Of a stretch of DNA of 64,000 bases, positions 1 to 23,300 are shown one piece after another. The position numbers were made by a program, and so were the translations under genes. Positions within the stretch are counted from its first letter, which is position 1. Each line of letters starts with the position of its first letter. Source of the DNA: Pseudofrankia sp. DC12 (lineage in GTDB: Bacteria; Actinomycetota; Actinomycetes; Frankiales; Frankiaceae); contig NZ_KQ031391.1 of NCBI RefSeq assembly GCF_000966285.1, forward strand, positions 2,639,208 through 2,703,207, read 5' to 3'. The notes under the pieces are model-generated. The model was not told the DNA's origin. It ran no database searches and saw nothing but the letters and a program-made list of their open reading frames with translations.

Positions 1-1820
1 CCGGCGCGGCGGTACCAGTGCGCGACGTCCTGGCCATCCTCGGCTTTCCCGCCGGATACCGTGGCTCGCCCCGCCTCGACCCGGCAGTGCTCGCCCCCCG
101 CGACGGGCTTCTGGCCACGCTCGCGCAGCGGTCGGCCCTGGATGGGTGCGCCGAGGTGGTCCTCGATGACGATCTGATCGAGTCCCTGCGGGGCGAGGAC
201 GACCGGCCGCCAATCCCACACACTGAGCTGCGGTTCACCCTCGCCGCCAGCACCCTACGTGACCTTGACCGCGGTTCGTTCACCCTGACAGTGGTGAGCG
301 GGGCCCGCCACGCGGGCGTGGCCGCCGGCCGGTTCCTGCACCTGCTCACCCCCGGCGAGCTGGACCGTTTCCGCGCCGTCTACGCCGCCCTGCCGACCGC
401 CCTGCCGGGCGCGCAGACCGTGCAACTGTCCGGCCCTCCACTGGACCCCCGGCTCACCACCGTCGCCCGTGCCCCGGAGCTTCTGCCAGTCCTGCCCGCC
501 GGCGACTTCCACCCCGGCTCGCCCTGGACGCTGACGGACTTGGCGATCACCGGAGACGGCCAGCGACTGTGGCTGGTGTCGTCCACAACCGGCCGGTCGG
601 TGGAGCCGCTGTTGTTCAACAGCGTGCGCCTGCCGGCGGGCCAGCAACCGATCCTCCGGTTCCTCACCGAGATCTGGACCGCGTGGACAGCGCCCTGCGC
701 CCGGTTCGACTGGGGCCAGGCCCGTCACCTGCCGTTCCTGCCACGGGTCCGGCGAGGCCGCTCCATCCTGCATCCGGCCCGCTGGAGCATCCTGGCGAGC
801 TCGTTACCCGCCCGCACCGCACCCTGGCCGGAATGGAAGACCGCCTGGCAGCGCCACCGCGAACGCCAGCGGCTGCCACGCGAGGTGCTGATGGGCGAGC
901 ACGACAGGCTGCTGCAGCTCGACCTCGACGAGAACGCCCACCTCGCGCTGCTGCGCCAGCACCTCGACCACCGGGCCAGCGCCGTCCTGATCGAGGCCAG
1001 TGGCTCATCGGAGTGGATCCACGGTCGACCCGCCGAGATCATGCTCACGCTCACTCACGCGCAGCCGGCGCCTCGCGCGGCCGCGCGCCCGGCCCGCCCC
1101 GCCAGCACCCTCGCCTACCGGCCCGGCCGCTCGCGCTGGCTGGACGCCCGGCTCGCCGGACGATCTGATCAGATCCTCGCCCGGCTCGCAGAGTTCCCCG
1201 ACCTACCCCCTGGCTGGTGGTTTCTGCGCTACCCACGACCCGAGGCCCATCTGCGGCTGCGGATACCGCTCCAGGACACCACCCGATTCGCCCAAGCCAC
1301 ATCCAACCTCGCGCTGTGGGCAGCGCAGTTGCAGGACGACGGTCTGCTGGCCGACTACACACTGGCGACCTACCGACCCGAGACCCGCCACGGCACCGGC
1401 GAGACCCTCGCCGCAGCCGAGGCGGTGTTCGCCGCCGACTCTCGCGCCGTGCTCCAGCGGTTATCCGGCGACCGGCAGGCCGCGACCGCGGCAGGGATGA
1501 TCGCCATCGCCGATGGGTTCACCAGCGACGGCGCCCGCTGGCTCGTCGACCACGCACCTCACCACAGTGGACCCCGCTTACAGTCCGCCCAGCTCGCGGG
1601 CGCCCGCCTGCCGTTTCGGGACAGCGACCTGGCCGCGGCCTTGGCCGCCTACCGGGCCCTCGCCCATAGGGACGGCCTGAATACCGATCAAATGCTGGCC
1701 GATCTGCTGCACCTTCACCACGCCCGCATGATCGGAGTCGACACCGCCTCCGAACGGCACTGCCTACGCCTCGCCCGTGCCGTGGCCCGTACCGACCTGA
1801 TGACGAGAACAACCTCGTGA
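1..1820 (+). CDS. Lantibiotic dehydratase LanB, C-terminal part (5' end outside window)
   Basis: This is a class I lanthipeptide dehydratase, which glutamylates Ser/Thr of a precursor peptide using Glu-tRNA and then eliminates glutamate to give Dha/Dhb. The reading frame is open to the window edge, and the GTG at 18 is internal: the preceding codons read GAAVP, followed by the typical LanB segment VRDVLAILGFPAGYRG. About residues 1-355 of the visible part belong to the glutamylation domain. From about residue 370 (GRSRWLDARLAG, then PPGWWFLRYPRPEAHLRLR) comes the SpaB_C elimination domain, so this is a full-length type LanB with its N-terminal third outside the window. The stop overlaps the next gene (LanC) by 4 nt (GTGA), implying translational coupling. 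Family assignment is secure; the product made is unknown because no precursor is visible. Confidence 0.9.
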   Translation, partial: GAAVPVRDVLAILGFPAGYRGSPRLDPAVLAPRDGLLATLAQRSALDGCAEVVLDDDLIESLRGEDDRPPIPHTELRFTLAASTLRDLDRGSFTLTVVSGARHAGVAAGRFLHLLTPGELDRFRAVYAALPTALPGAQTVQLSGPPLDPRLTTVARAPELLPVLPAGDFHPGSPWTLTDLAITGDGQRLWLVSSTTGRSVEPLLFNSVRLPAGQQPILRFLTEIWTAWTAPCARFDWGQARHLPFLPRVRRGRSILHPARWSILASSLPARTAPWPEWKTAWQRHRERQRLPREVLMGEHDRLLQLDLDENAHLALLRQHLDHRASAVLIEASGSSEWIHGRPAEIMLTLTHAQPAPRAAARPARPASTLAYRPGRSRWLDARLAGRSDQILARLAEFPDLPPGWWFLRYPRPEAHLRLRIPLQDTTRFAQATSNLALWAAQLQDDGLLADYTLATYRPETRHGTGETLAAAEAVFAADSRAVLQRLSGDRQAATAAGMIAIADGFTSDGARWLVDHAPHHSGPRLQSAQLAGARLPFRDSDLAAALAAYRALAHRDGLNTDQMLADLLHLHHARMIGVDTASERHCLRLARAVARTDLMTRTTS

Positions 1821-2893
1821 CGGCGGGGCAGTCGCTCACCGATGGAGCTGCCGGCATCGCGCTCCTCCACCTGGAAACCGGGGACTGGCCGGCGGCCTTC
1901 GCGACACTGCACCAGGCCGTCGCCGACAGCGTCAGCGTCGCCGATAGCGCGAGCCTCTACTACGGCGTGCCCGCCCTCGCGTTCGTCCTGGCCGCGCGTG
2001 ACCATCCGGGCCTCGCCCGAGCGAGGGCGACCGCCGCCGCGGGCACCGCCACAGTCACGCGCCGCCGGCTACAGGAGGCGCACCGCCGCATGGACGCCTG
2101 CGAGCGGCCCCGCTACGCCGAATACGACCTGATCCGCGGCCTGACCGGACTCGGCGTCGCACTACGCCGCATCGGCGATCTCGATCTGCTGCGCGACGTG
2201 CTGACCTACCTGGTGCGGCTCACCGAGCCGATCGACGGCCTCCCCGGCTGGTGGTGCCCGCACGGCCCCGACCGCGCCCAGGCCGGACCACCCGGCGGCC
2301 ACAGCAACCACGGGCTCGCCCACGGGATCACCGGACCGCTCGCGCTCCTGGCCCTCACTTCAATCGACGGCCTCGAGATCTCCGGACAGGCCGAAGCCAT
2401 CACACGGATCTGCCAGTGGCTGGACACCTGGGAACGGCAAGCAGGCGCAGGCACGTGGTGGCCTCAGCACCTCACGCTCGATGACCTCGACCGGGGCGAA
2501 CCCCATCAGCGCGGCCCGCTGCGGCCCTCCTGGTGTTACTCCACTCCTGGTATTGCCCGCGCGCAGCAACTCGCCGGCCGGGCCCTCGCCGACCTGAACC
2601 GCCTGCACAAAGCTGAGGCCGCCTTCGCCGCATGTATCACCGACCCGGCTCAACTCGGCCGCCTCATCGACCGCAGCCTGTGTCACGGCACCGGAGGACT
2701 CCTCACCGTCGCCCGCCGGATCAACGCCGAGGCACTCACCCCCATCGCGATCGAACCCCTGGCCGACCTCCATCAACGCACCAACCGAACGGCCACCGAA
2801 CAGGCCGGACTCCTCGACGGCCAGGCCGGCGCCGACCTGGCCACAGCCGGAACCACAACCACCAACTGGGACGCCTGCCTCCTGCTCTGCTAA
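1817..2893 (+). CDS. lanC: LanC-like lanthionine synthetase C (cyclase)
   Basis: LanC-family zinc enzymes add Cys thiols to dehydrated residues to form (methyl)lanthionine rings. The 358-residue protein has the alpha-toroid signature motifs in order: NHGLAHGITGPLALL (about residue 155-170), then PSWCYSTPGIARA with the first zinc Cys (about 235), then SLCHGTGGLL with the second Cys and the His ligand (about 290). It begins at a GTG overlapping the LanB stop, so it lies in the same operon. The length is slightly short for LanC (about 400) but all metal-site motifs are intact, so I expect an active enzyme. Confidence 0.92.
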   Translation: MTAGQSLTDGAAGIALLHLETGDWPAAFATLHQAVADSVSVADSASLYYGVPALAFVLAARDHPGLARARATAAAGTATVTRRRLQEAHRRMDACERPRYAEYDLIRGLTGLGVALRRIGDLDLLRDVLTYLVRLTEPIDGLPGWWCPHGPDRAQAGPPGGHSNHGLAHGITGPLALLALTSIDGLEISGQAEAITRICQWLDTWERQAGAGTWWPQHLTLDDLDRGEPHQRGPLRPSWCYSTPGIARAQQLAGRALADLNRLHKAEAAFAACITDPAQLGRLIDRSLCHGTGGLLTVARRINAEALTPIAIEPLADLHQRTNRTATEQAGLLDGQAGADLATAGTTTTNWDACLLLC

Positions 2894-2910
2894 CCGAAAC
2901 GGGCCCGACC

Positions 2911-3705
2911 ATGAATGAAACAGCCTGGAGACAGGTAAACATCACCTACCCGGGCCACGATCGCCGTCAACGTGAACGCCACGCCGTCGACCACCTCGCC
3001 CACGTGCTTCCCGCAGCCGAGGCCGACGGCCTCATCACCGCCTGGTTCTTCATCCGCAAAGGGCCTTGGCGTATCCGCTACCTGCTCACCCAGGACGCGG
3101 CCGGCGGCCACCGCGGACCGAACGGCGATCCCGTCCGTCCCCTGCTCGTCGACGGGGTCAGCTGGACCCCCGACATCTACGAACCAGAAACGCACGCCTT
3201 TGGCGGCACCGCAAGCATGCACTCAGCGCACGCCCTGTTCCACCACGACAGCCACTACCTTCTTCCCTACCTCATCGACAACCCCACCGACCGCCGCGAA
3301 CGTTCACTCCTGCTGTGTACCGCGCTCATGCGAACCGCAGGCCTTGATCTCAACGAACAGGGTGACGTATGGGCGCGGATCGCCGGCCTGCGCCCTCTAG
3401 CGACGCGCGGGCCTCTCGATCTTCAGAATTGGGTATCGTTCACCAGCAACGTCCGCCACCTCCTCCTCGGCCACGCCCGCGTAGGACTCATCGACCACAG
3501 CTGGATCAGCGCATTCGAGGAAGCGGGCAGGAAACTCCGAGCTCACCGCGAAAACGGCACACTCACCCGAGGACTACGTGCCGTCATCACACAATACGTG
3601 ATCTTCCACTGGAACCGCCTCGGGCTTAGCGCCGTCACTCAGGCCACGCTCGCCCGAGCCGCAAGGGAGGCCCTTTTCCGCAGCCGTGCCGCACCCGTCT
3701 CGTGA
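2911..3705 (+). CDS. Stand-alone SpaB_C / thiopeptide-type bacteriocin biosynthesis protein
   Basis: This 264-residue protein carries the thiopeptide-type biosynthesis (SpaB_C) signature: ITAWFFIRKGPWRIRYLL near residue 45, then YEPETHAFGGTASMHSAHALFHHDS near 90. In split LanB systems such a domain performs glutamate elimination; in thiopeptide systems homologues form the pyridine ring. I start it at ATG 2911, 17 nt after the lanC stop; the longer frame beginning at 2632 only overlaps lanC. Since the upstream LanB already has its own SpaB_C domain, this is a second, separate copy. That pairing is familiar to me from actinobacterial FxLD-type lanthipeptide loci, which would also encode a methyltransferase and an FxLD precursor; neither is visible here. 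Confidence 0.85.
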   Translation: MNETAWRQVNITYPGHDRRQRERHAVDHLAHVLPAAEADGLITAWFFIRKGPWRIRYLLTQDAAGGHRGPNGDPVRPLLVDGVSWTPDIYEPETHAFGGTASMHSAHALFHHDSHYLLPYLIDNPTDRRERSLLLCTALMRTAGLDLNEQGDVWARIAGLRPLATRGPLDLQNWVSFTSNVRHLLLGHARVGLIDHSWISAFEEAGRKLRAHRENGTLTRGLRAVITQYVIFHWNRLGLSAVTQATLARAAREALFRSRAAPVS

Positions 3706-3804: not shown

Positions 3805-5132
3805 TCACCAGTCCCGGCTGTCCGCCACTGACCCGTCGATACTGAAACCAAAACGCAGCAATCGATCATCACCGCCCTTGGCGAGCAGCCAAGCCAGCCG
3901 GTAGGCGGCCTGCCCGTCGCCGGCGATGGCCCGGCCACGCAGGCCCTCAATGTCCCCTGTCTTGGCCAATTGCTCGGTCATCCGGTGGGCGGCATTCTCA
4001 TCACGAATGTTGGCGCGGGCGTGCGGAGTCTTGATCGCACCCTCGATGTTCCCGGTCTGGGCCAGCAGCCTGGCCAGCCGGTAGGCGGCATGCCGGTCGC
4101 CGACGTCGGCACGGGCACGCAGGCCCTCGACGTCTCCGGTCTCGGCCAGCAGCCTGGCCAACCGGTAGACCGCGTTCTCGTCGCCGCTGTCGGCACGGGC
4201 ACGCAGGCCCTCGACGTCTCCGGTCTCGGCCAGCAGCCTGGCTAAGCGGTAGGCCGCGTTGTCGTCGCCAGTGTCGGCGCGGGCGCGCAGGGTCCCGACC
4301 GCCGCCGCGACGTCCCCCGTCTCGGCCAGCAGCCTGGCCAACCGGTAGACCGCGTTCTCGTCGCCGTTGTTGGCACGAGCTCGCAGACCCTTGTCGTTCC
4401 CGGTCTGGGTCAGTAGCAGAGCCAGCCGGTGAGCGGAATGCCGGTCGCCTGCTTCGGCACGAGCACGCAGACCCGCGGCGTCCCCGGTCTCGGCTAACAG
4501 CAGGGCCAAACGATAGGCGGCATTCTCATCACCGCTGTCCGCGCGGGCACGCAGGGTCCCGACTTCACCCTCAACGTTCCCGGTCTGAGCCAACAGGTCC
4601 GCAAGCCGGTGGACGCTATTTCGGTCGCCTGCTTCGGCGCGAGCACGCAGACCCGCGATGTCCCCGGTCTCGGCTAACAGCAGGGCCAAACGATAGGCGG
4701 CATTCTCATCACCGCTGTCCGCGCGGGCACGCAGGGTCCCGACCGCACCCTCGACGTCCCCCGTCTCGGCCAGCAGCAGGGCCAGCCGGTGGGCGGCATG
4801 CCGGTCGCCCAACTCGGCGCGAGCACGCAGACCCGCGATGTCCCCGGTCTCGGCTAACAGCAGCGCCAAACGATAGGCAGAATTCTCATCACCGCTATCC
4901 GCGCGGGCACGCAGGGTCCCGACCGCACCCTCGACGTCCCCCGTCTCGGCCAACAACTCTGCGAGCCGGTAGGCCGCGTTCTCGTCGCCGATGTCGGCGC
5001 CGGGGCGCAGAGCCTCGATCGCACCCTCGACGTCCCCGGACTCGGCCAGCAGCGTCACCAGCCGGTAGGCGGCGGCTCGCTCGCCGGTGTCGGCCAGAGC
5101 ACGCAGGCCGTCAACGTCCCCGGCCCCGGCTA
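3805..5132 (-). pseudogene. 3' part of an IS-split TIR/P-loop/repeat protein (TPR/Sel1-like repeats)
   Basis: The sequence translates as about 14 tandem helical-hairpin repeats with the core pattern GD-x-x-GLRARA-D-x-GDENAAYRLA-x-LLAET, resembling Sel1/TPR arrays that act as ligand-sensing or protein-binding scaffolds. Units of two lengths alternate, depending on an extra EGAVGT-type segment. The frame continues from the 5' part at 6263-8008 once the IS630 element and one TA are removed: 582 plus 441 codons give one 1,023-residue protein ending at the stop at 3805. The frame running up to 5358 reads through transposon DNA and is not a genuine start. Several repeats are almost identical at DNA level, so recent unit duplication is likely. 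As it stands this piece has no start of its own. Confidence 0.82.
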
Positions 5133-6262
5133 GTGTCCTGAGTCTTTGGTCCTCGTGTAGATCGTATACTTGAGGTATGCCTGGGACGCGCGCTGTGCAG
5201 ATTGAGCTTTCCGTCGAGGAGCGGCGGGTGTTGGAGGGCTGGGTGCGGCGTCCGAAGACGTCGCAGGCGTTGGCGACGCGGTCACGGATCGTGCTGGCGT
5301 GCGCATCGGAGGCCACGAACGGGCAGGTGGCGGGGACGGTCGGGGTATCGATCGGCACGGTGGCGAAGTGGCGGGGCCGGTTTTTGAAGGATCGGTTGGA
5401 GGGTTTGGTTGACGAGCCGCGGCCGGGCCGGCCGCGGACGGTGTCGGACGACCAGGTTTATGAGGTGGTCACGAAGACGTTGGAGACGACGCCGCCGAAT
5501 GGTGACACGCATTGGTCGACGAGGTCGATGGCGAAGGCGACGGGGTTGTCGCAGTCGACGGTGTCGCGGATGTGGCGGGCGTTCGGTTTGAAGCCGCATT
5601 TGGTCGAGACGTGGAAGCTCTCGACCGATCCGCTGTTCGTGGAGAAGGTCCGTGATGTGGTCGGGGTGTATCTCGATCCGCCGGAGAAGGCGATTGTTCT
5701 CTGTGTCGACGAAAAAAGCCAAATTCAGGCTTTGGATCGCACCGCGCCTGTTCTTCCGATGATGCCCGGTACCCCGCAGCGGATGACTCATACCTACGTC
5801 CGCAACGGCACGACCAGCCTGTTCGCCGCCTTGGACCCGACGTCCGGGTCGGTGATCGCTCAGCATTACCGGCGCCACCGCCATCAGGAATTTCTCCGTT
5901 TCCTGAAGCTGATCGACGCCTCGGTTCCCACCGGCTACGACCTGCATCTGATTCTCGACAACTACGCCACCCACAAGACTCCGGAGGTGCAGAAGTGGCT
6001 GCTGCGGCATCCCCGGTTTCATCTCCACTTCACCCCGACCTCGTCGTCATGGATGAATCTCGTGGAGCGCTGGTTCGCCGAGTTGACGAACCGCAAACTG
6101 CGTCGCTCTGCTCACCGTTCCGTCGTCGAACTCGAAGCCGACATCCGAAAGTGGATCAACGCCTGGAACAAGGACCCGAAGCCGTTCGTCTGGGCCAAGA
6201 CCGCGGACGAGATCCTCGAGACCCTCGCCGCCTACTGCCAACGAATTAACGACTCAGGACAC
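5133..6262. mobile_element. IS630-family insertion sequence, 1,130 bp, TA target duplication
   Basis: The ends are imperfect terminal inverted repeats: GTGTCCTGAGTC at the left, its exact complement at the right, then divergence after 12 bp. The element is flanked by TA on both sides (5131-5132 and 6263-6264), as expected for IS630/Tc1-type insertion at TA. It contains one intact transposase gene on the plus strand. Removal of the element plus one TA precisely restores the minus-strand host reading frame (AYRLAELL joined to AGAGDVDG), which confirms the boundaries. The intact transposase and clean ends suggest a recent insertion. Confidence 0.95.
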
Positions 6263-6265
6263 TAG
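5177..6265 (+). CDS. IS630 family transposase (DDE)
   Basis: This is a full-length 362-residue transposase. An N-terminal HTH region (SIGTVAKWRGRFL, with PGRPRTVSDD following) precedes a winged-helix segment (LSQSTVSRMWRAFGLKP) and the DDE catalytic core. The candidate acidic residues lie in VLCVDEKSQ, HLILDNYATHK and WMNLVERWFAEL, the canonical IS630 motifs. It starts at ATG 5177, about 45 bp inside the left end. The stop TAG at 6263-6265 is formed by the duplicated target TA plus one host base, so the element does not encode its own stop codon. No frameshift or nonsense mutation is seen. Confidence 0.95.
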   Translation: MPGTRAVQIELSVEERRVLEGWVRRPKTSQALATRSRIVLACASEATNGQVAGTVGVSIGTVAKWRGRFLKDRLEGLVDEPRPGRPRTVSDDQVYEVVTKTLETTPPNGDTHWSTRSMAKATGLSQSTVSRMWRAFGLKPHLVETWKLSTDPLFVEKVRDVVGVYLDPPEKAIVLCVDEKSQIQALDRTAPVLPMMPGTPQRMTHTYVRNGTTSLFAALDPTSGSVIAQHYRRHRHQEFLRFLKLIDASVPTGYDLHLILDNYATHKTPEVQKWLLRHPRFHLHFTPTSSSWMNLVERWFAELTNRKLRRSAHRSVVELEADIRKWINAWNKDPKPFVWAKTADEILETLAAYCQRINDSGH

Positions 6266-8008
6266 CAGCTCGGCAAGCCGGTAGGCGGCGAACTCGTCGC
6301 CATTGTCGGCGCGTGTTCGAAGGAGGGGGACGGCGATGGTGTAGATGCGCCGGTCATATGTGGCAGTGGCGATGCGGTCAATGTCGTTCGGGTCGGTGAG
6401 ATGGTCGCGTAGCGCGGTCCAAAGGCTGGCGGGTGGGCGGTTTCCGTGGCGAGCACGCGTCGCGTATTGGAGGAGGTAGTCAGCGGTGATGTAGCCGGTA
6501 ATATTGCCCATGCCGCCGAGTCCGGCGGGGTCTAGAGCGGCGGCGGCGCCGTGCATGGTGTTGTTGTCAGTGGCGTAGGCGAGGGCGTCCTCGAACCAGT
6601 CGCCGGGGGCCCGGGCCTGCTGTCGGGCGTTGCAGTAGCCGGGTGCCGCCGCGCGCAATAGGGCTGCGGGCAGGGGTGCGCGGGCGCCAAGGCGGGCGGC
6701 GTCGAGCGCGGCGGTCAGCAGCGCCGACCGGTACGGCCCACGGGCCGGGCCGCCGCTGGCGATGGCCTGTTCCCAGCGAGCGACCAACTGCGGGGCGGCG
6801 GCCAGCGTCTGGGTCAGCCCGTAATCGGCCGTGGCAAGCGCGGCTCGCAGCTTCGGGTCGGTCTGGGCGGACCGTTCGGCTCGGTCATATTCGGCGTGAC
6901 TGAACGTGGAGTCGATCTGGACCGAGTCGGCCAACCACAGCAGGCTACGTTGCTCCCGGTGGCGGTCCTCGTCGCTGTCGCGGTCCGGCAGCGCAGTGTA
7001 GCGGGCGAAACGGTCGGGCCAGATCGTGGCGACCACCACCACTGGCCCCGGCCCGTCCAGCAGCCCACGCAGCACGCCGGCGGTCAGGCCATGGTCGCCA
7101 TCGAGATAGTTCTGGATCTCATCCAGCCAGACCACCAGCTGGCGCGGCCGAAGCCCGACCAGCGCGCCGACCGCCGCAGCGTCGGCCGGGTGAACCAGCC
7201 ACCAGTCCGACACGACGGCGCGCACCGCCTCATAGACCGTCCGAGTCTTCCCCACCGACGAGTCCCCGATCAGCAGGACAAACCCGCCCCGTTCAGCGGC
7301 TGCAGTGATCTTGGCGTGAACCCCGTCAACTGCCTCGTCGACATCGCGGGCTACATAGGCCGGCAGGTCCCCGTCCGCCACGCCTGACACCTGGATCGGC
7401 CGGTGCACTCCCAGCCAGTAGGGGTCGGCATCCGCGACCCGCCGCCACCCCGCCAACAGGCTGCCGGATGACCCTGGAAACCAAGGTCGGGCGGGGCTGG
7501 CCCCGCCTGGGAATGCCACGGGACGGTGAGGTTTGCCCCGACCACCCGCCACAGCTGCCAGCAGGCGCACCCCAGCTTCCTCCTGTTCCAGACCGAACAG
7601 ATCAGCCCCGACCAGCAGTCCGAGAAACCCTGGCAGGGAGCAGTCCTCGACCCGTACCGCCACCAGCTTGCGGGCGTTGCCGGACGGGTCGGCGGCCCAC
7701 GCCGCCTGCCACTGCGCCTCGCCATACGCCGAATCCAGATAGGACGCCGACACGACCGCGACCGTGCGGGCCGTCGTCGAGACTGCCCAATCCAACTCAC
7801 GGATTAGATGTGCACCGGCGCTGAAGTCCCATGCCTGTAGCACCACCCGGTAGCCGGCATCCTCCAGGTGCCAGGAGATCCACTCCGCCCACGGCCGGTC
7901 GACCTCGGCGTACGACACGAAGAAATCCGCACCGTCACCAACGCGCCCGCCGACCGGCGCGTCCGCCCCCGCTCCCACAGCAACAGACTCCCACAAACAA
8001 TCTGTCAC
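6263..8008 (-). pseudogene. 5' part of an IS-split TIR/P-loop NTPase/repeat protein
   Basis: This encodes an N-terminal TIR_2-type domain (about residues 28-120; DFFVSYAEVDRPWAEWISWHL, then SASYLDSAYGEAQWQAAW). A P-loop NTPase follows, with Walker A GDSSVGKT at 248-255 and a Walker B-like WLDEIQNYL at 294-302, and then the first helical repeat. The GTG start at 8008 has GAGGTGA upstream at suitable spacing. The frame is broken by the IS630 element; the remaining 584-residue product would lose nearly all repeats. Such TIR-STAND proteins are known or predicted conflict/antiphage proteins in which TIR consumes NAD after sensing. The position usually occupied by the TIR Glu (YGRAEW in relatives I recall) reads YGEAQW here. 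It lies 28 bp downstream of the EAD1/NB-ARC remnant, probably once the same operon. Confidence 0.85.
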
Positions 8009-8036: not shown

Positions 8037-9309
8037 TCAGCGACAGCTGCCGTCGTGGGCGGTCGGTGGGGCTGACAGCCGGTGGACGGCGATTTCGCTG
8101 AGGAGTTGGGTGCCGTCTAGGAAGCTGAATTCGACGGCGTGGTCAGGGCCATCAATGGGCCTGGTCTCGTCGGCGAGGTAGAGGTCGAACCAGTACGGCC
8201 GTTCGTCCTGTGGGTCGCCGAGTTGGTGACGGGATGACGTCCAGACGCCCGCGGCAGTCCGGACTTTCTCGACGACGTAGAGCTTGCCCTCCGCCGGGTT
8301 CGCGGCGGTCGGCTTAGTGTCGGCCGCGGTCGGTGCGCGCACGACGAGCCAGAGAACTTTGCCAGCGGGGACGCGCGCTGCGGTCCCAGACATGACGTAG
8401 CAGAAGTCGACGGCCGGGTGTGTCGGTCTCGTCGAGATAGCCGGCAGCCTGTTCGACCGCGAACGGCAGGTCACCGACGGCGGCGGCGAGCTGGCCGGCC
8501 ACAGCCCGGTCCAGGCCAGAGACCCGCTCCTGGAGCAGGGCCACGGAGGCGTCCCGGTCTAACAGCGGGACCGGCAGCGCGCGGCCCAGCCCGCGGACGG
8601 AACGCAGCCGTGAGGTCACCAGCACCCTGCCGCCTTCACCGGGCTGGAACGGTGCCACAGCGCCGACATCTTCGACGTTGTCGAAGATGACCAGCCAAGA
8701 GGCAACTCTTCGCAGCGCGATCCAGATCGACGCCGGGTCTGAGCCAGGAGGCAGGCCCAAGGCCTTGGCCAGGCCTGCCAGGTGCTGGCCAACGAGCTCG
8801 GCCCGCTCGGCGGGAACCCACCAGGCGACATCGAACTCTGCAGCATGACGGTGGGCGTATTCCAACGCGGCCGCCGACTTACCCACTCCGCCCATCCCAT
8901 CCAGCGCGACCAACGCCACCCTGGCATCGGCGGTCAGTTTCGCGTGAAGGTCGGCGAGGAGCCCGTCGCGCCCGACGAAGCGTGGCAGACGCCCAGGAAG
9001 GTTCCAGACCACAGGCCCAGACGGTGTCGCGCCGCCCACGGCAGCGGCCGTGGCGATGCCGTCAAACGCCGAGTTGTTCGGGTAACGTTCCCGGGCCGCC
9101 GTGAGAAGCTTCCGCCTGCCGTCGACCAGCGCACCGGCGCGAAGCTCCCGAGAGATCGCCGACCAGAACAGCCGGGGCGTCGGTGCACTCGACGGCAGGT
9201 CCGCGAGCGGAAAGCGCACGGCAGCCAGAAGATCCGTGGCGGCGTCACGGTCATGAAAGACCGCCGCGAACGCGGAGATCTCCCGCTCGGTCAGCCCTTC
9301 GCCGTTCAC
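8037..9309 (-). pseudogene. Collapsed EAD1-like/NB-ARC ATPase gene (internal deletion and frameshift)
   Basis: Starting at GTG 9309 (GGGGGTG just upstream), the translation gives an effector-associated-domain-1-like N-terminus (LTEREISAFAAVFHDRDAA, ending LLTAARERYPNNSAF). An NB-ARC ATPase follows, with Walker A GMGGVGKS, Walker B-like WLVIFDNVED and LVTSRLRS. After EQAAGYLDETDTP the frame becomes meaningless. At the same point (about 8410-8430) another frame carries an unrelated beta-rich C-terminal domain (VLWLVVRAP, KLYVVEKVRTAAGVW, YWFDLYLADE) ending at 8037. NB-ARC proteins of this kind normally have winged-helix and TPR regions between these parts, so I infer an internal deletion joining the two ends out of frame. 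Up to 357 residues could still be made as a truncated ATPase. Confidence 0.75.
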
Positions 9310-9770
9310 CGCACCCCCGCGCACGGCCGAATCCACGCAGACGGACGAGGCCGTCACACCGCCGCACATCTTCGCACCAACCGCCACCGCCTGGTGCGCA
9401 GACCGCCCAGGAATGACACCCGGCAGTTCGCGGCCAGCCCGGGCTGATGGGCGGTATCGCGAACAGGCTCCCGGCCGTCCGCGCCCGGCAAGATGATGAG
9501 ATCAGGGCCTGTCTGGACACGTCCGTCCCGTCCGCCCGCTTCGGGTTGGCTGGAGCGTCCCGAGCTGTCGCGCGAACCGCCGGGTGACCGGTCCTCGTCG
9601 GACGAGCGTGCCTCGCGACCTTCCGTAGTCCCGCCGGTACCGGAGGGCGGCGTTCGCCCAGCGGCGTCAAGGAACGCGCGGCTGGCATGCCATCGTTGCC
9701 TCTCGGACCAGGCGGTAGGGCCGACCGGTCCGGCCGCCTTTCGCCCATCTCCGTGCGCCCAGGAGTGTCG
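9310..9770. other. Intergenic region with no recognisable gene
   Basis: This stretch lies between divergently transcribed genes (the NB-ARC remnant leftwards, the DUF1254 gene rightwards). Several open frames cross it but none has a plausible start, motif or coherent composition. It should contain promoters for both directions; I could not identify a convincing -35/-10 pair. Confidence 0.5.
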
Positions 9771-14745: not shown

Positions 14746-15186
14746 CGCGGGACGGGCGACCCCGGCGGACACGCAGTCCGGTGTCAGCCCGCCGACGGCA
14801 TGTTTCCGCAGGTAGCGGCCCTGTCGGTAGCATCGGGGATGCTAATCGTTGGACCATGCATGATGGGGTAGCGGTTCGCATTGTGGTCACTCAGGTTCAC
14901 CCCTGATCATTGGCGAACCCGCAAGCTGGATTTATGTCCCTTCTGTAGCGGTTCAACTACACCTGTATGGCTGGGTCGGTGTGGGTCGCAGGCCCCAAAG
15001 CGCAGGTAGAACGTTGATCGCGGTTCGCCCCTGGAACGTTCGCGTCCCGCTGACCGGCGAGTGGTATTGATCTTCCCTCTTGTCTGGTCGGAGCGGCTGG
15101 AACGGGCGTCGGCGGCCAGCGTTCGCCGAGTCGGCTGAGTTCCCGCCGTACGCTGACGGGATCGGCGATTGGCGGAGTTGAGCTGC
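14746..15186. other. Intergenic, contains the left 30-bp repeat of the STAND module
   Basis: Apart from the repeat at 14866-14895 I see no gene. The DNA is less GC-rich than its neighbours around 14840-14960, which fits a recombination junction and a promoter for the downstream NTPase gene. Confidence 0.45.
14866..14895 (+). repeat. Left copy of a 30-bp tRNA-like direct repeat (candidate att site)
   Basis: This matches 24456-24485 in 29 of 30 positions (the single difference is C/A at position 25). Its centre, CATTGTGGTCA, resembles the anticodon loop of a tRNA-His (TTGTGGT). A degenerate T-arm-like CAGGTTC follows. The two copies enclose 9.6 kb of STAND/TIR genes. Integration into tRNA 3' parts typically leaves such duplications. 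No integrase is present between them, so the att interpretation is an inference. Confidence 0.55.
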
Positions 15187-18100
15187 TTGTCTACAGAAAG
15201 TTCCGTGTCGACTGCCAGCGTGCCGCGATTCTGGTGCCTTCGCGGCGGCGCGTACACGCTCGACGATCAAGGCTTCCTGCGCGATCCTGACGAGACCTGG
15301 CTCGGTACGCGCGTGGCGAACCCGGAGGCGCTGCGCACCGATGACGTGCGCGAGCAGCGGTGCGTGGCGTTGCTGGGAGAACCTGGCACGGGAAAGTCGA
15401 CCGCGGTCGCGGAAACAGCGCAACTGGTTACCGCTGGAGTGTCGCTCCTGTCCTTTGACCTCGGGGCATATGGCTCGGAGGACCGACTGGTGCGCGAGGT
15501 GTTCGACAACTCGTCGATCGCCGCGTGGTCGGCCGGGTCCGACGAGCTGTGTCTCGTGCTCGACTCCCTTGACGAGGCTCAAGCCCGAGTCCCCAATGTA
15601 GGTGCGATCGTCGCCGACTGTGTCCGTCGGCTCCCGTACGAGCGGCTGTTCCTGCGCATCGCCTGCCGAACTTCGGACTGGCCACCGGGACTGGAGGGCC
15701 GGTTGGAGCAGCTGTTCGGCGCGGTTACGGTGGTCGAGATCCTGCCGCTTCGCCGGGCAGATGTAGCGGCGATCGCGGCAGCCTGGTGCGATCCGTCGCC
15801 GTTCCTCCACGAGGTCGCGCAGGCCGGCGCCGGGCCGCTCGCCGCCCGGCCCCTGACTTTGCGATTTCTCGCCCGCGCTTTCGGCCAGTCGGGGGCGCTG
15901 CCTGGGCGGGGCGCCGCGTTGTACGAAGCGGGAATCCGCGCTCTCTGTGAGGAGCAGAACCCCGTCCGCCGCGACGCACGGCTCGGGGGTGTGATATCGC
16001 TCGATCAGCGCGTCGCGATCGCTCGACGTGTCGCCGCGGCGACGGTGTTCGGCGGTGCGTCTGCTATGTGGACCGGTCCGGAGGTTGAGGCGCCGGGCGA
16101 GGACATCGCTGTTGAGCGTCTTGCCGGGTCGGTCGAACCGACCGACGCGGGCAAGGTTGACGTCTCCGTGTCCGCGTTGTGGGAAGCCGCGCGGACGGGG
16201 CTGTTTGCTAGCAGCGGTGGACAACGCCTCGGCTGGGCACATGCGACGTTCGCTGACTTCCTCGCCGCGGATTGGGTAGTCGCCAACGATCTATCGGCGA
16301 CCCAGGCCGGGCCGCTTTTCCTCGGCCCGGACGGCCGCTGCTGGCCGCAGACCCGTCTTGCTGCGGCCTGGGCGGTGGCGATCGCACCGGAGCGATTCAC
16401 ATTCCTTACCGCGGCGGACCCGGCGGCGTTCCAGGGTGAGGTCGAACTTCCGGGCGACGCACTGCGCGCCGCGGTAATCGACGGGTTGTTCTCGGTCGCC
16501 AGCATGCTTACCGCAGCGCCGTGGGAGCGCTCATACCACGCGCTGCGACACGGCGACGTCGCCGAACAGATTCGCCCGCACCTGCGCGACCCCGACGCGG
16601 ACTGCCGCCGCTTGGCCCTTGACCTCGCCGACGAGTGCGCCGCAGTCGAGCTGAGCGGTGAGCTAGCTGCGATCGCCACAGACACCGCCGTTGAAACGTA
16701 CGACCGCGTCGCCGCCGGCCGGGCACTGGCGCGGCTTCCGGACCCCCACCGGACCGCGGCGCTGCGCCCGCTCGCGTCTGACGCCGCCGCGCGGGGCGAC
16801 GACCCGAAAGACGAGCTGAAAGGCGTCTCGCTGCTCGCCTCCTGGCCACATGCCATATCCAACGCGGAGGTGTTCTCCGTGCTGACTCCCCGCCAGCAGC
16901 GCAACTATCACGGCGCCTACGCCGTGTTTCTCGATCGGTTTCGCGCCAATATCACCGCGACTGACATCGACGCCGGCCTCACGTGGCTCCTCAGCGACCT
17001 CACCACGCCAAGCGACGACCACGATGTGGGTGCCCTTGCGAACCGCGTACTGACCCTGGCCGCAATGCGTCCGTCCGACGCCGCTGTCGTCGACGCGTTC
17101 ACCCGCGTCGTCCTCGCCCGCGTTGATCAATACGAGGGCCTGCTGTTCGAGGATCTTCGCCCTGACGAACGCGGCGACCCGCTGGCAGACCCTGTGCTGC
17201 GACGGGCCGTCGCGACCGCGGTGCTCGCTACCGACCAGACGAACAGGGTGCTCTATAGACTTGCTGGTCCCAGCTCGCACTCGCTCGCCGTCGTACGTGC
17301 CGAGGACCTCGCGTGGCTCGCCGAGATGTACGTGGAAGCCGACAGCGAGACGCGGGAAGCGCTGCGCTCGCTGTTCGGCTGGACGTTCGACGCCAGCGCC
17401 CCCGAACACCGAAACCTGGTGCTCGACATGCCAGTCGGACACCCCCTGCATGTCGATCTCGTCCATGCCTGGGTGAACCCGGTCGCGCTCGACTCGCCCG
17501 AGGCCGACAACATGCGTCGATCCTGGAGGAAGCCTCACGAGCCGAAGCCTGCGAGCGGCGATGCCGACAACGTCAACGAGCAGATCGAAGAGCTGCTGAC
17601 ACGGTTCGACGAGGGCGAGGCGGTCGGCTTCTGGCACAGCACACGGCTGCTGGCCGTCGCGCCGGGTTCCAAGTGGCCTGGGGTCGAGTTCGACCTGGAC
17701 GTCGTCGGCATGCCGCGGTGGCCGACTCTGAGCGAGGAGTTGCGTGAACGCCTCGTCGAAGCCGCCGATCGGTATCTGCGCTCCCACCTGTGCGAGCCTG
17801 AGCAGTGGCTCCATAACCCCGAGACCACCTACTTTCCGGCGGAGGCCGGGTACCGGGCGATGCTGATGCTGCTCCGGATCGCGCCCGAACGCCTTGCCCA
17901 GCTGCCCCCGGCTGCGTGGATCGAATGGGCCCCGGTCCTCGCCAGCGTGTCCACGGCGGCCGTGAACGGCCCGACTTGGGAAGACAAGCTGCGGATGTTC
18001 GAGCTCGCCGGACCTGCGGCGCATGACGCGGCCCGCGCCGCGCTGCTGACCTGGGTGGACGCCGCCGTGTCGAAAAGCAGGCGGCCGTCCGCCTCCAACG

Positions 18101-19335
18101 AAGCCAGCTACCTGTGGGACGGCAATGTCGCGTCCACCTATCTGTCACTGGCTCGGTCCGCGGAGGCAGAACCGCGCGAAGAACTCGTCACCACGCTCGC
18201 CACGCACGACTTCAGCCTGCTGCGACCGTTGCTGCTGGAATGGTTGGAGAATCCGTCCGACCCCGACCGGTATCGGCTGGCGGCGGGGCAGCTCATCGAC
18301 CACGACCTCGAACAGAGTTGGCCGGCGGTGAAGGCCGCGCTCGACGCTGCCCCAACGCTCGCGGAGCAGGTGCTCGGGCACGCGTTGACGGTTCGTGGCT
18401 TCAACCGGATCGATCACGTGTCGCCCTCGGTCCTGGCCGATATCTACCTGTGGCTGCGCGCGAGGTTCCCACCGGAGTCCGACCCGCAGTTCGACGACGC
18501 CCACCTGGTCGGGCCTCGCGAGCAGATCGGGCAGTGGCGCGATCGACTCTTGGGCCAATTGCGAGACGAAGGGTCGCCGGAAGCCGCCGAGGCTATCCGC
18601 GTGATCGTCGCGGCGCTGCCAACCGAAGGGTGGCTCACGAGGACGCTGTCGATCGCAGAAGCGGCGCTGCGGCGCAACCAGTGGACACCCACGCCGCTGC
18701 CCCAGCTTCTCCAACTGGCCGACGACCGCCGCACAGTCCTGGTGAACGACGCCGCCGCCCTCGCCGCGGCGGTCGCCGCCGCGATGGACGACATCCAGAC
18801 ACGGCTGACCGGTGCGACGCCCGAGTCGCACTACCTGTGGGACACCCACTCGGGCCGGCCGAAGTCCGAGGACGAGATCTCGGACTACCTCGCCAACGAG
18901 CTCAACCGCGTCCTGACCGAGAGCGGCGCGATCGTCAATCGCGAGGTGCAAATCCGGCGCAGCCGGCCCAGCGGCATCGGCGAGCGCACGGATCTCCTCG
19001 TTGACGCCGCTCCTGGGGGCGGGGCCAACACAGGCCGCATATCGCTGCCCATCGAGGTCAAAGGGGCCTGGAACAGCGAGCTGCGCACTGCCATACGCGA
19101 TCAGCTCGTCGAGCGGTACATGTGCGACACCGCCTCCGACGACGGCATGTACGTAGTCGCCTGGCCCGATCTGGAGGGCTGGACAGACCTAGCCGATTCC
19201 CGGCGGTCGGCGCTGGCGTCGCTCAACCGCGATGCGGTCGAGGCCGAACTCGCCGCGCAGGTATCCGCACTGGCGCAGGACGGGACGCGAGTGCGCGTGG
19301 TGCATCTCGGTATTGACTACCACCGACAGAGGTGA
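15187..19335 (+). CDS. Large STAND/NACHT-like NTPase with C-terminal PD-(D/E)XK-type nuclease
   Basis: This is a protein of about 1,382 residues. I prefer TTG 15187 (GGAG 9 nt upstream); TTG 15169 would add 6 residues. Near the N-terminus are Walker A GEPGTGKS (about residue 64-71) and Walker B LCLVLDSLDEA (about 121-131), followed by RIACRTSDW. This is the order seen in NACHT/STAND P-loop ATPases. A winged-helix region (FADFLAADWV) precedes about 800 residues of helical repeats. The last 120 residues show a nuclease pattern: EISDYLANELNRVL, then GERTDLLVDA, then LPIEVKGAW, matching D-(x)n-E-x-K catalytic spacing, then QLVERYM. STAND proteins usually oligomerise on sensing a trigger and activate an effector; here the effector would be C-terminal, whereas Avs-type proteins carry it at the N-terminus. 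No frame damage. Specific target unknown. Confidence 0.82.
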   Translation: MSTESSVSTASVPRFWCLRGGAYTLDDQGFLRDPDETWLGTRVANPEALRTDDVREQRCVALLGEPGTGKSTAVAETAQLVTAGVSLLSFDLGAYGSEDRLVREVFDNSSIAAWSAGSDELCLVLDSLDEAQARVPNVGAIVADCVRRLPYERLFLRIACRTSDWPPGLEGRLEQLFGAVTVVEILPLRRADVAAIAAAWCDPSPFLHEVAQAGAGPLAARPLTLRFLARAFGQSGALPGRGAALYEAGIRALCEEQNPVRRDARLGGVISLDQRVAIARRVAAATVFGGASAMWTGPEVEAPGEDIAVERLAGSVEPTDAGKVDVSVSALWEAARTGLFASSGGQRLGWAHATFADFLAADWVVANDLSATQAGPLFLGPDGRCWPQTRLAAAWAVAIAPERFTFLTAADPAAFQGEVELPGDALRAAVIDGLFSVASMLTAAPWERSYHALRHGDVAEQIRPHLRDPDADCRRLALDLADECAAVELSGELAAIATDTAVETYDRVAAGRALARLPDPHRTAALRPLASDAAARGDDPKDELKGVSLLASWPHAISNAEVFSVLTPRQQRNYHGAYAVFLDRFRANITATDIDAGLTWLLSDLTTPSDDHDVGALANRVLTLAAMRPSDAAVVDAFTRVVLARVDQYEGLLFEDLRPDERGDPLADPVLRRAVATAVLATDQTNRVLYRLAGPSSHSLAVVRAEDLAWLAEMYVEADSETREALRSLFGWTFDASAPEHRNLVLDMPVGHPLHVDLVHAWVNPVALDSPEADNMRRSWRKPHEPKPASGDADNVNEQIEELLTRFDEGEAVGFWHSTRLLAVAPGSKWPGVEFDLDVVGMPRWPTLSEELRERLVEAADRYLRSHLCEPEQWLHNPETTYFPAEAGYRAMLMLLRIAPERLAQLPPAAWIEWAPVLASVSTAAVNGPTWEDKLRMFELAGPAAHDAARAALLTWVDAAVSKSRRPSASNEASYLWDGNVASTYLSLARSAEAEPREELVTTLATHDFSLLRPLLLEWLENPSDPDRYRLAAGQLIDHDLEQSWPAVKAALDAAPTLAEQVLGHALTVRGFNRIDHVSPSVLADIYLWLRARFPPESDPQFDDAHLVGPREQIGQWRDRLLGQLRDEGSPEAAEAIRVIVAALPTEGWLTRTLSIAEAALRRNQWTPTPLPQLLQLADDRRTVLVNDAAALAAAVAAAMDDIQTRLTGATPESHYLWDTHSGRPKSEDEISDYLANELNRVLTESGAIVNREVQIRRSRPSGIGERTDLLVDAAPGGGANTGRISLPIEVKGAWNSELRTAIRDQLVERYMCDTASDDGMYVVAWPDLEGWTDLADSRRSALASLNRDAVEAELAAQVSALAQDGTRVRVVHLGIDYHRQR

Positions 19336-20332: not shown

Positions 20333-23300
20333 TCAAGAGTGCAGTCGTAGGAGTGTGGTGCCGAGGGCTTGGTCGGTGGCGCAGCAGAGTTCGTCCTGGT
20401 GCCACCCGAGGTTGGTGATCGGTGCGGTAAGCCGCACGGAGGTCGCCACGGTCGAGGCGTGCAAGTCCCAGAGCAGGACGGTTCCATCGTGGCTGCCGGC
20501 GGCGAGGAACTGGCCATCTGGTGTGAACCCGAGGGCGGTGACCTTGCCGAGGTGGCCGGTGATGGTGGTGTGTTCGGTCCCGTCGGCGAGGTTCCACAGT
20601 CGAATTTCGCCGACGTCGTCGCCGGTGGCGATTAGCCGGCTGTCTGGTGAGGCGGCGATCGTTCGGACCCAGGTGTGGTGGCCGTCGAGACGGGCGTGCT
20701 CGGAGTCGGTGGCGATGTTCCACAGCACGGCGGTTCGCCCGGTGCTGGCAGCCAGGAGGCTGCCGTCGGCCGAGAACGTGGGGAGACCGACCTCGCTGTT
20801 CCAGCCGGTGAAGGTGACGTGCTGGTCGCCGGTCGCGGTGTTCCAGATCCGGACGGCAGGACCGGTCTCGGTACTCACGATCAGGCGGCCGTCCGGGGAG
20901 AACGCGAGGCGCTTGAGGTAGTTGGCTGCGCCGTCCGGGGAGCGTGGGGCTGGGTCGAACCTGGTGTGGACGGTGCCGCTCGACGTGTCAGAGAGGCGGA
21001 TGGATCTCCCGACGACGGTCGCGAGCAGCCGGCCGTCCGGGGAGAAAGCCGCTGTGCTTCCGAAGTCGAGGCCGCCGACGTGGACGGCGTCCTGGGCGCC
21101 TGTGGCGGCCCTGTAGATCCATCCTGTCTGCTCATCTGTGCAGGCCGCGAGTAGCCAGCCGTGGGAAGCGTGACCGAGGCCCAGCGTCCACAATCTGCGG
21201 CCGGGGGCGTTCTCTGCGTGCGGGTTCCACAGACGGGTGGTGTGGTCGCCGCTGCCGGTGGCGACGGCCTGGCCGTCCGGAGCGAAAGCGACCGCGTTGA
21301 CCGGCGCGGTGTGGCCGGTGAGCGTCGCTCGCTGGACGCGGCTGGTGGCGTCCCAGATCCGCAGCGCGCGGTCATCGCCGGCGGTGGCGAGCAGCCGGCC
21401 GTCGGGCGAGAACGCGAGGGCGTTCACCGCATCTAGCCATTCGGTAGACACGGGGAACGTCACTGGAGTTTCAGCGTCTGAGGTGGTGTCCCAGAGGTAG
21501 ATGGTCTCGTCCTTCCCACCGACGGCGAGGATTTGACCGTCTGGGGAAAATGCAATGACCTGTACGCCTCCGCGGGAGATGCCGTAGAGGGCAACGTGCT
21601 CGGCGCCGGTGTCACTGCTCCATAGTCTTAGGGAACCGTCCCGACCTGCGGTCGCGAGCTGCTCGCCGTTCGGGGAGAAAGCCACGGTGCGTACGTCGTC
21701 GGGATAGGGATGGATGCTCACTCGGGCGATGGCGGTCGCGACGTTCCAGAGTGTTGCCAAGTGGCCGCCTCCGGCGGCCAAAAGCTGGCCGTCGGGGGAG
21801 AACGCGAGGGAGGTAATCCGCCCGAAGTGGCGGCCGGTGAGGACAACGGGTTCGGTGTCGGCGTTCAGATCCCACAGGAGCACGTCGATGCTGCCAGTCG
21901 CGAGCAGCCGCCCGTCGGGCGAGAACGCGACGCTTCCGACGCCGTCGCGGTAGCCGCTCACCACGGCGACTTCGGTGCCTAAGTCCACGTCCCAAAGACG
22001 CACGGTCCGGTCGTCGCCACCGGTCGCGAGCAGGGCGCCATCCGGGGAGAACGCGACCGTGTTCACGGCGCCGGTGTGGCCGGCGAGGACACGCAGCAGC
22101 GCGGTGTCCGTCGTGAGTGTCGACCAGACGACCTCGAAGAACGTGCCGGTGAGCATCCGAGTATAGGCGGCGGCGCTCGCCGCGAGTTCGGGAACCGAGG
22201 CGATGTGGGCTGCCAGCGTCGGGGCGAGCCCGTTGGCGGGTAGCGGCGGGTAAAGCAGGTGGGTCATCCCAGCCAGGGAGCGGGCGAGGGCCCGGGCCTG
22301 GCCGGTGGCGACGATGGCGAGGTCGATCTCGGCCGTGAGCGTGGAACCGGTGCGGACAAGCGACGCGGCGACCCACCGCAGGTCGGTGGCGACCGCGGCT
22401 GCGTCCTCGGTCAGCCCCGCGCCGACGAGGTGGTCGATGAGCCGGCCGGCCAGATAGTCGCCGGCGAGGTTGTCGGGCAGGTGCGACCAGTCGGTCCGAT
22501 CGTCGGTGTCGGCGGTCAGGCGACGGGCTGCGGCGACGAACGCGGCGTGACCCTCCTGGAGGCCGGTCGGGCCGAGGTCGTGGCGGAGAAGCGTGCGCAC
22601 GACGTCGTGCAGGTCGACCATCGGGCCGGCGTAGGTCCACTGGCGACGTGCCAGCCGGCGGTGGTCGAGCTCGTCCACCAGCTTCTTGGACCGACCGGGG
22701 CTGAGCCCGCCGGTCTCAGCCCAGAGCAGAGCGATGACGTCGAGGGGGATGGCCGTGTCTTCGGGGAACATCGCGAGTTCGCCGAATCGGAGCCGTTCCG
22801 CCGCGGTCAGGCCGTTCAGGCTGACCTCGAGGGTGGCGTGGAGGCTGCTGTCGCGGCTCGTCTCGTCCCGGATGTCGAGGACGGCGGGCCCCTCGGCGGC
22901 CAGCTGGTCGGCGAGCGCTTCGGCGGCCTGGGCGGGTGTGGCGCCAGCGTTGAGATCGGCGCGAAGCGTACCGTTGGCGAGGCTCAGGGGGAGCGGCCAG
23001 CGGCCCAATGCGTCCAGCAGCCGGCGGGCCAGAGGGCCGGGCAGGTCGCCGACCTGCCCGCAGAGCAGCTCCCGGGCCTCGTCATCGGTCATCTCTTCGA
23101 CCGACACCACCCGGGTGCCGGTAGGCAGGGCGCGGACCACCCGGGTGGTGACGAGCAGCCGGCAGGCTCGCCCGACAGCGCGGAACGGGGCAAGCTGGGA
23201 GGCGGACCAGGCGTCGTCGACGACGAGCAGCACAGGCGGCCCCCCGGCCAGCAGTTTGGCGACCCGGCTCGCCGCCTGGACAGGGTCGGTCAGACCGGTG

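What the first reader, a model, noticed from the sequence alone, without database searches (positions are those of the whole stretch)
3805..8008. Exact IS630 insertion splits a 1,023-residue TIR/P-loop/repeat gene
Removing 5133-6262 plus one TA joins AYRLAELL to AGAGDVDG in frame with 582 and 441 codons, giving a single uninterrupted gene. The insertion must be recent because both halves are otherwise undamaged, and the event is in principle reversible by precise excision.
Basis: seen in the sequence. Interest (0 to 1): 0.6.

Follow-up and report, generated by a model that had tools for sequence, protein, structure and literature searches.

The report
Jumping gene splits bacterial immune-like gene
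A small mobile DNA element has landed cleanly inside a large immune-receptor-like gene of a Frankia-type bacterium, cutting one repeat of its sensor in two; this is an ordinary kind of event, in an interesting and little-described receptor family.

Summary
A complete IS630-family element (5133-6262; perfect 12-bp terminal repeats, TA duplication, intact DD35E transposase) interrupts a minus-strand gene. Without joining the halves, a 28-position repeat model made from other genes' units matches the upstream half up to position 14 and the downstream half from position 15: one sensor repeat is cut. In 12 of 18 distinct homologous regions one open frame matches both halves, so this is one gene. 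'Recent' is plausible (no stop or frameshift in 3,069 coding bases) but undated; exact restoration by transposase excision is not expected. The gene is NLR-like: TIR, a P-loop core below every Pfam and NCBIfam cut-off tried, about 15 short TPR-like repeats. The core occurs in 19 of 35 genomes of the host's family but 9 of 396 drawn from the phylum, behind TIR, HNH, EAD1 or HTH. Repeats vary most at columns matching recalled TPR ligand positions; in 6 of 11 genes they resemble each other more than those of any other gene. The element sits in CTAG, and the target supplies its transposase stop codon. The insertion is ordinary; the receptor family is the better lead.

The parts
6263..8008 (-). N half of the interrupted gene: 582 codons; TIR + P-loop NTPase core + first half of the split repeat unit
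7562..7924 (-). TIR domain (residues 29-149); residue 103, in the column holding Glu in most relatives, is Gln
   Evidence: Pfam TIR_2 1.5e-30; alignments
7244..7267 (-). Walker A (P-loop) GDSSVGKT, residues 248-255
   Evidence: G, S, G, K, T the same in 16 of 16 core sequences
7118..7135 (-). Walker B VVWLDE, residues 292-297
   Evidence: W, L and E 16 of 16, D 15 of 16
6263..6304 (-). first half (model positions 1-14) of the split 28-residue repeat unit
   Evidence: HMM match to positions 2-14 ending at residue 582
6263..6264 (.). target duplication TA (right); with G6265 it also forms the transposase stop codon TAG
5133..6262 (+). IS630-family insertion sequence, 1130 bp; the only full copy found in this genome
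5133..5144 (+). left terminal inverted repeat GTGTCCTGAGTC
6251..6262 (-). right terminal inverted repeat, perfect over 12 bp
5177..6265 (+). transposase, 362 aa, D178-D261-E297 (DD35E)
   Evidence: NCBIfam NF033545 2.3e-83, above its cut-off
5131..5132 (.). target duplication TA (left); the target site was CTAG
5089..5130 (-). second half (model positions 15-28) of the split repeat unit
3853..5088 (-). remaining repeats, 28 or 32 residues each, the last partial; predicted alpha-solenoid (mean pLDDT 83.5)
3805..5130 (-). C half of the interrupted gene: 441 codons plus stop; its last residues resemble the C-terminal end of several homologues

Best explanation
An autonomous IS630-family element inserted at a CTAG site inside a sensor repeat near the start of the repeat array of an NLR-like receptor gene and ended it as a full-length gene. 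Shown: exact element ends, TA duplication, in-frame halves, one split repeat unit, uninterrupted relatives. Inferred: the intact protein is a switch in which the C-terminal TPR-like solenoid senses an invader or partner, the P-loop core changes state or oligomerises with nucleotide, and the N-terminal TIR passes on the signal. Since the expected catalytic Glu of this TIR is Gln, it more likely acts by TIR-TIR contact than by cutting NAD (inference). The 584-residue frame that remains keeps TIR and NTPase core but has lost the sensor.
For: Element anatomy. Abutting HMM positions 14 and 15 at the two edges. Single frames of 826-1383 codons, stop to stop, matching both halves in 12 of 18 distinct regions. 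CTA before and TAG after in 6 of 6 elements of at least 1127 bp and in one 84-bp derivative; CTAG is rare here (27 in the window against about 80 expected) and the gene holds one other CTAG. NLR-like layout: TIR_2, P-loop motifs, repeats, solenoid model with TPR superhelices among its fold matches, weak AAA+ and STAND fold matches for the N half, Avs5 among them, different N-terminal modules on related cores. Other NLR-like genes nearby.
Against: No empty site of the same species was available. The N-half model is poor (mean pLDDT 61.4), so the fold of the core rests on motifs and weak matches. The core has T-x-W-P (T 15, W 16, P 15 of 16) where a STAND protein would be expected to have TxR (recalled). 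Immune function is inferred from architecture only; PADLOC gave only weak matches over the TIR (best E 0.0027).
Confidence: 0.85

Rival explanations
1. The insertion is kept as a reversible on/off switch for a costly receptor: the element leaves at some frequency and restores the gene.
For: Precise TA duplication, intact transposase and undamaged halves.
Against: Cleavage two bases inside the 5' ends in ISY100 (PMC2170065) predicts a footprint; one full copy of the element in the genome; no second allele seen.
Confidence: 0.04
2. The insertion is older and not fully inactivating: the truncated TIR-NTPase product (584 aa) or the C-terminal repeats are still made and selected as separate proteins.
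For: Both halves remain open; the C-half frame runs on into the element to a GTG at 5358; the N half holds the TIR and the P-loop core.
Against: The N-half frame ends two residues after the junction, in the middle of a repeat; none of the 18 homologous regions has its gene end at this point except L060, where the contig ends. Expression was not testable.
Confidence: 0.1
3. Assembly artefact: the element was misplaced in the gene by the assembler.
For: IS elements are common assembly trouble spots (general knowledge).
Against: The genome is a single 6.88-Mb contig with one full copy of this element, so there is no second copy to cause a misjoin; a TA duplication inside a CTAG target shared with other elements is not expected from a misjoin.
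Confidence: 0.01

Closest known systems
IS630 / Tc1-mariner family insertion sequences (for example ISY100, PMC2170065)
   Same: DDE transposase, TA duplication, short terminal inverted repeats, single gene
   Different: Here 6 of 6 near-full-length elements sit in CTAG and the transposase frame runs to the last base of the element, so the target's TAG is its stop codon; whether this is described elsewhere I could not establish
Bacterial STAND / NLR-like receptors (conflict systems, PMC7159879, passages; Avs5 among the fold matches)
   Same: N-terminal effector or adaptor such as TIR, P-loop NTPase, C-terminal superstructure-forming repeats
   Different: The core reaches no Pfam cut-off (window gene and 9 homologues) and no NCBIfam cut-off (window gene); T-x-W-P in place of the recalled TxR sensor; repeats of only 28 or 32 residues
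Fungal NLRs with high internal repeat conservation (PMC4986451, passages)
   Same: In 6 of 11 genes repeats resemble each other more than those of any other gene; variation concentrates at columns matching TPR ligand positions; N-terminal domains vary on a shared core
   Different: Bacterial; mean within-gene identity in the window gene is 0.70-0.73 against an 85% criterion there; repeat-number polymorphism within a species not tested

Membership tests
IS630 family | Transposase matches the IS630 equivalog model above its cut-off | tested here: met
   NF033545, 280.1 bits against cut-off 100
IS630 family | DDE triad with about 33-36 residues between second D and E (range recalled) | tested here: met
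   D178, D261, E297; 35 residues between
IS630 family | TA target duplication | tested here: met
   TA at 5131-5132 and 6263-6264
IS630 family | Terminal inverted repeats | tested here: met
   12 bp perfect; 19 nt at 95% counting flanking bases
STAND/NLR-like NTPases | Walker A and Walker B | tested here: met
   G, S, G, K, T in 16 of 16; W, L, E 16 and D 15 of 16
STAND/NLR-like NTPases | Canonical sensor-1 TxR motif (recalled) | tested here: not met
   T-x-W-P at the place judged equivalent; that equivalence rests on the order of motifs only
STAND/NLR-like NTPases | N-terminal effector/adaptor and C-terminal superstructure-forming repeats | tested here: met
   TIR_2 and TPR matches; solenoid model
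STAND/NLR-like NTPases | AAA+-type core fold with winged helix | tested here: inconclusive
   15 Foldseek matches at E 1.6e-4 to 1e-3, TM-scores at most 0.21 of the query; model mean pLDDT 61.4
STAND/NLR-like NTPases | Ligand-triggered, nucleotide-dependent oligomerisation | not testable with these tools
   needs biochemistry
NAD-cleaving TIR enzymes | Catalytic Glu (SxWCxxE-type site, recalled) | tested here: not met
   Gln at residue 103 and in the F. nepalensis homologue; Glu in 25 of 35 distinct TIR stretches
TPR repeats | Helix-turn-helix repeats matched by TPR models, 34 residues per unit | tested here: inconclusive
   TPR_19 2.4e-12, above its cut-off, and helical hairpins, but units are 28 or 32 residues

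The most novel reading that the evidence does not exclude
The interrupted gene belongs to an unnamed, Frankia-enriched clade of NLR-like receptors in which one NTPase core is combined with interchangeable N-terminal modules (TIR, HNH nuclease, EAD1, HTH) and with a short-TPR sensor whose repeats are, in about half of the genes, homogenised within the gene and diversified on the ligand face, as in fungal NLRs. In the window gene and its best homologue the TIR has lost the catalytic Glu and would serve as an adaptor.
Probability: 0.35. Interest if true: 0.55.

Novelty: new member of a known kind. Interest (0 to 1): 0.3.

Why it matters
The insertion is a natural interruption of a large receptor gene, but such events are common. 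More useful is the receptor family: it has members in about half of the genomes held for one actinobacterial family, and offers a bacterial setting in which to ask whether sensor repeats diversify as in fungal NLRs, and whether a TIR without its catalytic Glu still signals.

Tried and rejected
Looking for a near-identical donor element: none in 58 genomes (best full-length 81%; shorter pieces up to 97% over 93 bp in G019) and none among the 15 listed of 572 matching plasmid records (the two listed full-length matches are 74%; 4 of 572 records at 80-90% by best place). Looking for a shared gene neighbourhood: 7 neighbouring proteins against 14 homologous loci, limited to the flanks held, gave only NB-ARC or EAD1 domain matches in L054 and L062 and none in the F. 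nepalensis locus. Positive selection: overall pN/pS among repeats was below 1 in all 10 genes tested (0.39-0.95), so no gene-wide claim is made; pN exceeded pS at some columns (4, 7, 8, 9, 12, 16 and 25) among pairs above 80% nucleotide identity, seen after the fact. Homogenisation: mean within-gene identity exceeds every between-gene value in 6 of 11 genes (window, L052, L053, L058, L065, L072), and not in L054, L056, L057, L062 and L064; two further genes with fewer than four usable units were left out. TPR ligand positions: recalled, and aligned by a GD anchor chosen by eye; p = 0.0024 and the highest mean of 17 registers (3.06), but registers shifted by 4 are next (2.73 and 2.64). Literature: five searches on the family, its repeats or Frankia and two touching the target-supplied stop codon. 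No listing title pointed to this core or that stop codon, but I opened only three papers, and by passages only (PMC7159879; PMC2170065; PMC4986451), so I claim no absence from print.
Full report
What is there. The window lies at 2639208-2703207 of a single 6.88-Mb contig. Named homologues of the gene come from Frankia nepalensis CN7, a Pseudofrankia and two metagenome-assembled actinobacteria, and the F. nepalensis contig is the same length as contig C144 of G003, a genome of the window's own genus, so the host is a Frankia-type actinobacterium. On the minus strand, 8008 to 6263 reads 582 codons and 5130 to 3805 reads 441 codons and a stop. Between them lies an element of 1130 bp with perfect 12-bp ends and TA on both sides. 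Its 362-residue product is an IS630 transposase by the curated model (280 bits, cut-off 100) with D178, D261 and E297.

Is it one gene? The strongest evidence needs no joining. I collected repeat units from homologues, starting from the window's own repeats, then left the window out and built a model of 28 positions from the 91 remaining units. It matches the end of the N half up to position 14, on its last residue, and the start of the C half from position 15, on its first residue (11.2 and 11.8 bits). The element thus cuts one repeat unit in its middle, with no residue lost or gained once one TA is discounted. I examined 20 fetched loci, 18 distinct (L070 is the gene of L052, L071 that of L055). 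In 12 of the 18 a single open frame, 826 to 1383 codons from stop to stop, matches both halves: in seven the N-half match includes the TIR (L052, L053, L055, L057, L058, L059, L063), in five it covers the core only (L054, L056, L062, L064, L072). In L065 and L066 a frame crosses the site, but the gene is split into several frames further upstream. L060 stops at the contig end; L061, L069 and L073 match only the N half at the threshold used (E 1e-10). The loci were taken from the best hits, not at random.

How recent? Both halves lack stops and frameshifts. If both had been free to decay by substitution alone, half of 1,500 simulated lines would show a stop by 27 changes (0.9% of sites) and 95% by 120 (3.9%). 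This ignores indels and assumes no selection. No allele of the same species was available. The genome has one full copy of the element plus a 38-bp fragment of one end. The best full-length relative in 58 genomes is 81% identical, and the two listed full-length plasmid matches are 74%. The donor was not seen. Recent is plausible, not shown.

The element. Among ten elements whose two ends were recognised in the fetched loci (at most two mismatches per 12-base end), seven have CTA before and TAG after: all six of at least 1127 bp (the window's, three from relatives, two from Streptomyces plasmids) and an 84-bp miniature copy in G027. Three shorter ones (365-990 bp: L028, L029, L041) differ on at least one side. 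The preferred target is therefore CTAG, which is rare here: 27 in the window, two of them at the junctions of this insertion, against about 80 expected. In 6 of 6 near-full-length elements the transposase frame runs to the last base of the element and the next codon, outside, is TAG; in one of the six (L133) that frame is open for 207 codons only. The Streptomyces annotation of L132 likewise ends three bases beyond the element. The target site thus supplies the stop codon.

Excision. For ISY100 the transposase cuts exactly at the 3' ends and two bases inside the 5' ends (PMC2170065, passages).

The interrupted gene. The N half holds TIR_2 (1.5e-30) and only sub-threshold AAA matches; no NCBIfam model, no PHROG, and only weak PADLOC matches over the TIR. 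The motifs are clear: GDSSVGKT and VVWLDE, nearly invariant across 16 core sequences, followed by T-x-W-P. At E 1e-10 the core profile finds 19 of 35 genomes of the host family, own genome included, some by weak or partial matches, and 9 of 396 genomes drawn across the phylum, own included. N-terminal modules on related cores vary: TIR in the window gene and L052 by Pfam and in L053, L055, L057, L058, L059 and L063 by alignment and profile; EAD1 in L062, HNH in L069, HTH in L054 (at the cut-off) and L064; none recognised in L056, L061, L072 and L073. Pfam was run on 9 homologues. Because the first search used the TIR-bearing half, the sample leans to TIR.

Fold. The N-half model is poor (mean pLDDT 61.4, five sequences). 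Its PDB matches are AAA+ machines (NSF, RFC), SAMD9 and the STAND protein Avs5, with low TM-scores (at most 0.21 of the query). The C half, predicted alone, is a regular helical solenoid (mean pLDDT 83.5); its first match is a designed repeat protein, followed by TPR superhelices, with a Sel1 protein at rank 6, all with low TM-scores.

The sensor. The C half has 13 units of 28 or 32 residues and a last partial one. Units in the window gene are 73% identical to each other on average, against 40-58% to those of ten other genes. Mean within-gene identity exceeds every between-gene value in 6 of 11 genes (window, L052, L053, L058, L065, L072) and not in the other five; over all, 0.57 within against 0.49 between. 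Variation is greatest at columns 4, 5, 8 and 12 (entropy 3.3-3.7 bits), followed by 20 and 17. Columns equivalent to the recalled TPR ligand positions have mean entropy 3.06 against 1.36 elsewhere (p = 0.0024), the highest of 17 registers, though registers shifted by four are next. Overall pN/pS is below 1 in all ten genes tested, so the case for diversifying selection is limited to single columns.

The TIR. In 35 distinct TIR stretches of the fetched loci the column in question is Glu in 25, Gln in 5, Asp in 2, Val in 1 and a gap in 2. The five Gln rows are the window gene twice (once as a cut copy), the F. nepalensis homologue, L017 and L089. The sample is not random. If that Glu is needed to cut NAD, as recalled for other TIRs, this TIR is probably not an NADase, independent of the insertion.

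Surroundings. Three further NLR-like genes lie within about 16 kb beyond position 8008: a short EAD1-NB-ARC frame (8314-9387), a frame with sub-threshold NACHT and AAA matches (15169-19335) and a WD40-rich frame (20333-24184) that also carries a TIR (L079). The core itself was found only once in this genome.

Verdict. The event is a textbook IS630 insertion with a neat internal proof. The receptor family, its varied N-terminal modules and its short-TPR sensor are the part worth following.

Noticed in passing
5177-6265 and L132, L133, L023, L024, L025: The transposase has no stop codon of its own: in 6 of 6 near-full-length elements the frame runs to the element's last base and the CTAG target supplies TAG.
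   Followed up: partly
L068:406-489: An 84-bp miniature copy made of both ends of this element type, also in a CTAG site, in relative G027.
   Followed up: partly
8314-9387, 15169-19335, 20333-24184: A cluster of NLR-like genes: EAD1-NB-ARC (short; matches positions 1-206 of 830 of FxSxx_TPR, below its cut-off), sub-threshold NACHT, and TIR with WD40 repeats.
   Followed up: partly
18-3705: Lanthipeptide-type genes: lantibiotic dehydratase N and C domains, LanC-like cyclase and a second dehydratase C domain.
   Followed up: no
1-64000: CTAG is about three-fold under-represented (27 against about 80 expected).
   Followed up: no
L065 and L066: Two homologues of the receptor, in G014 and G022, are split into several frames, so broken copies may be common in this family, or the drafts contain errors.
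   Followed up: no
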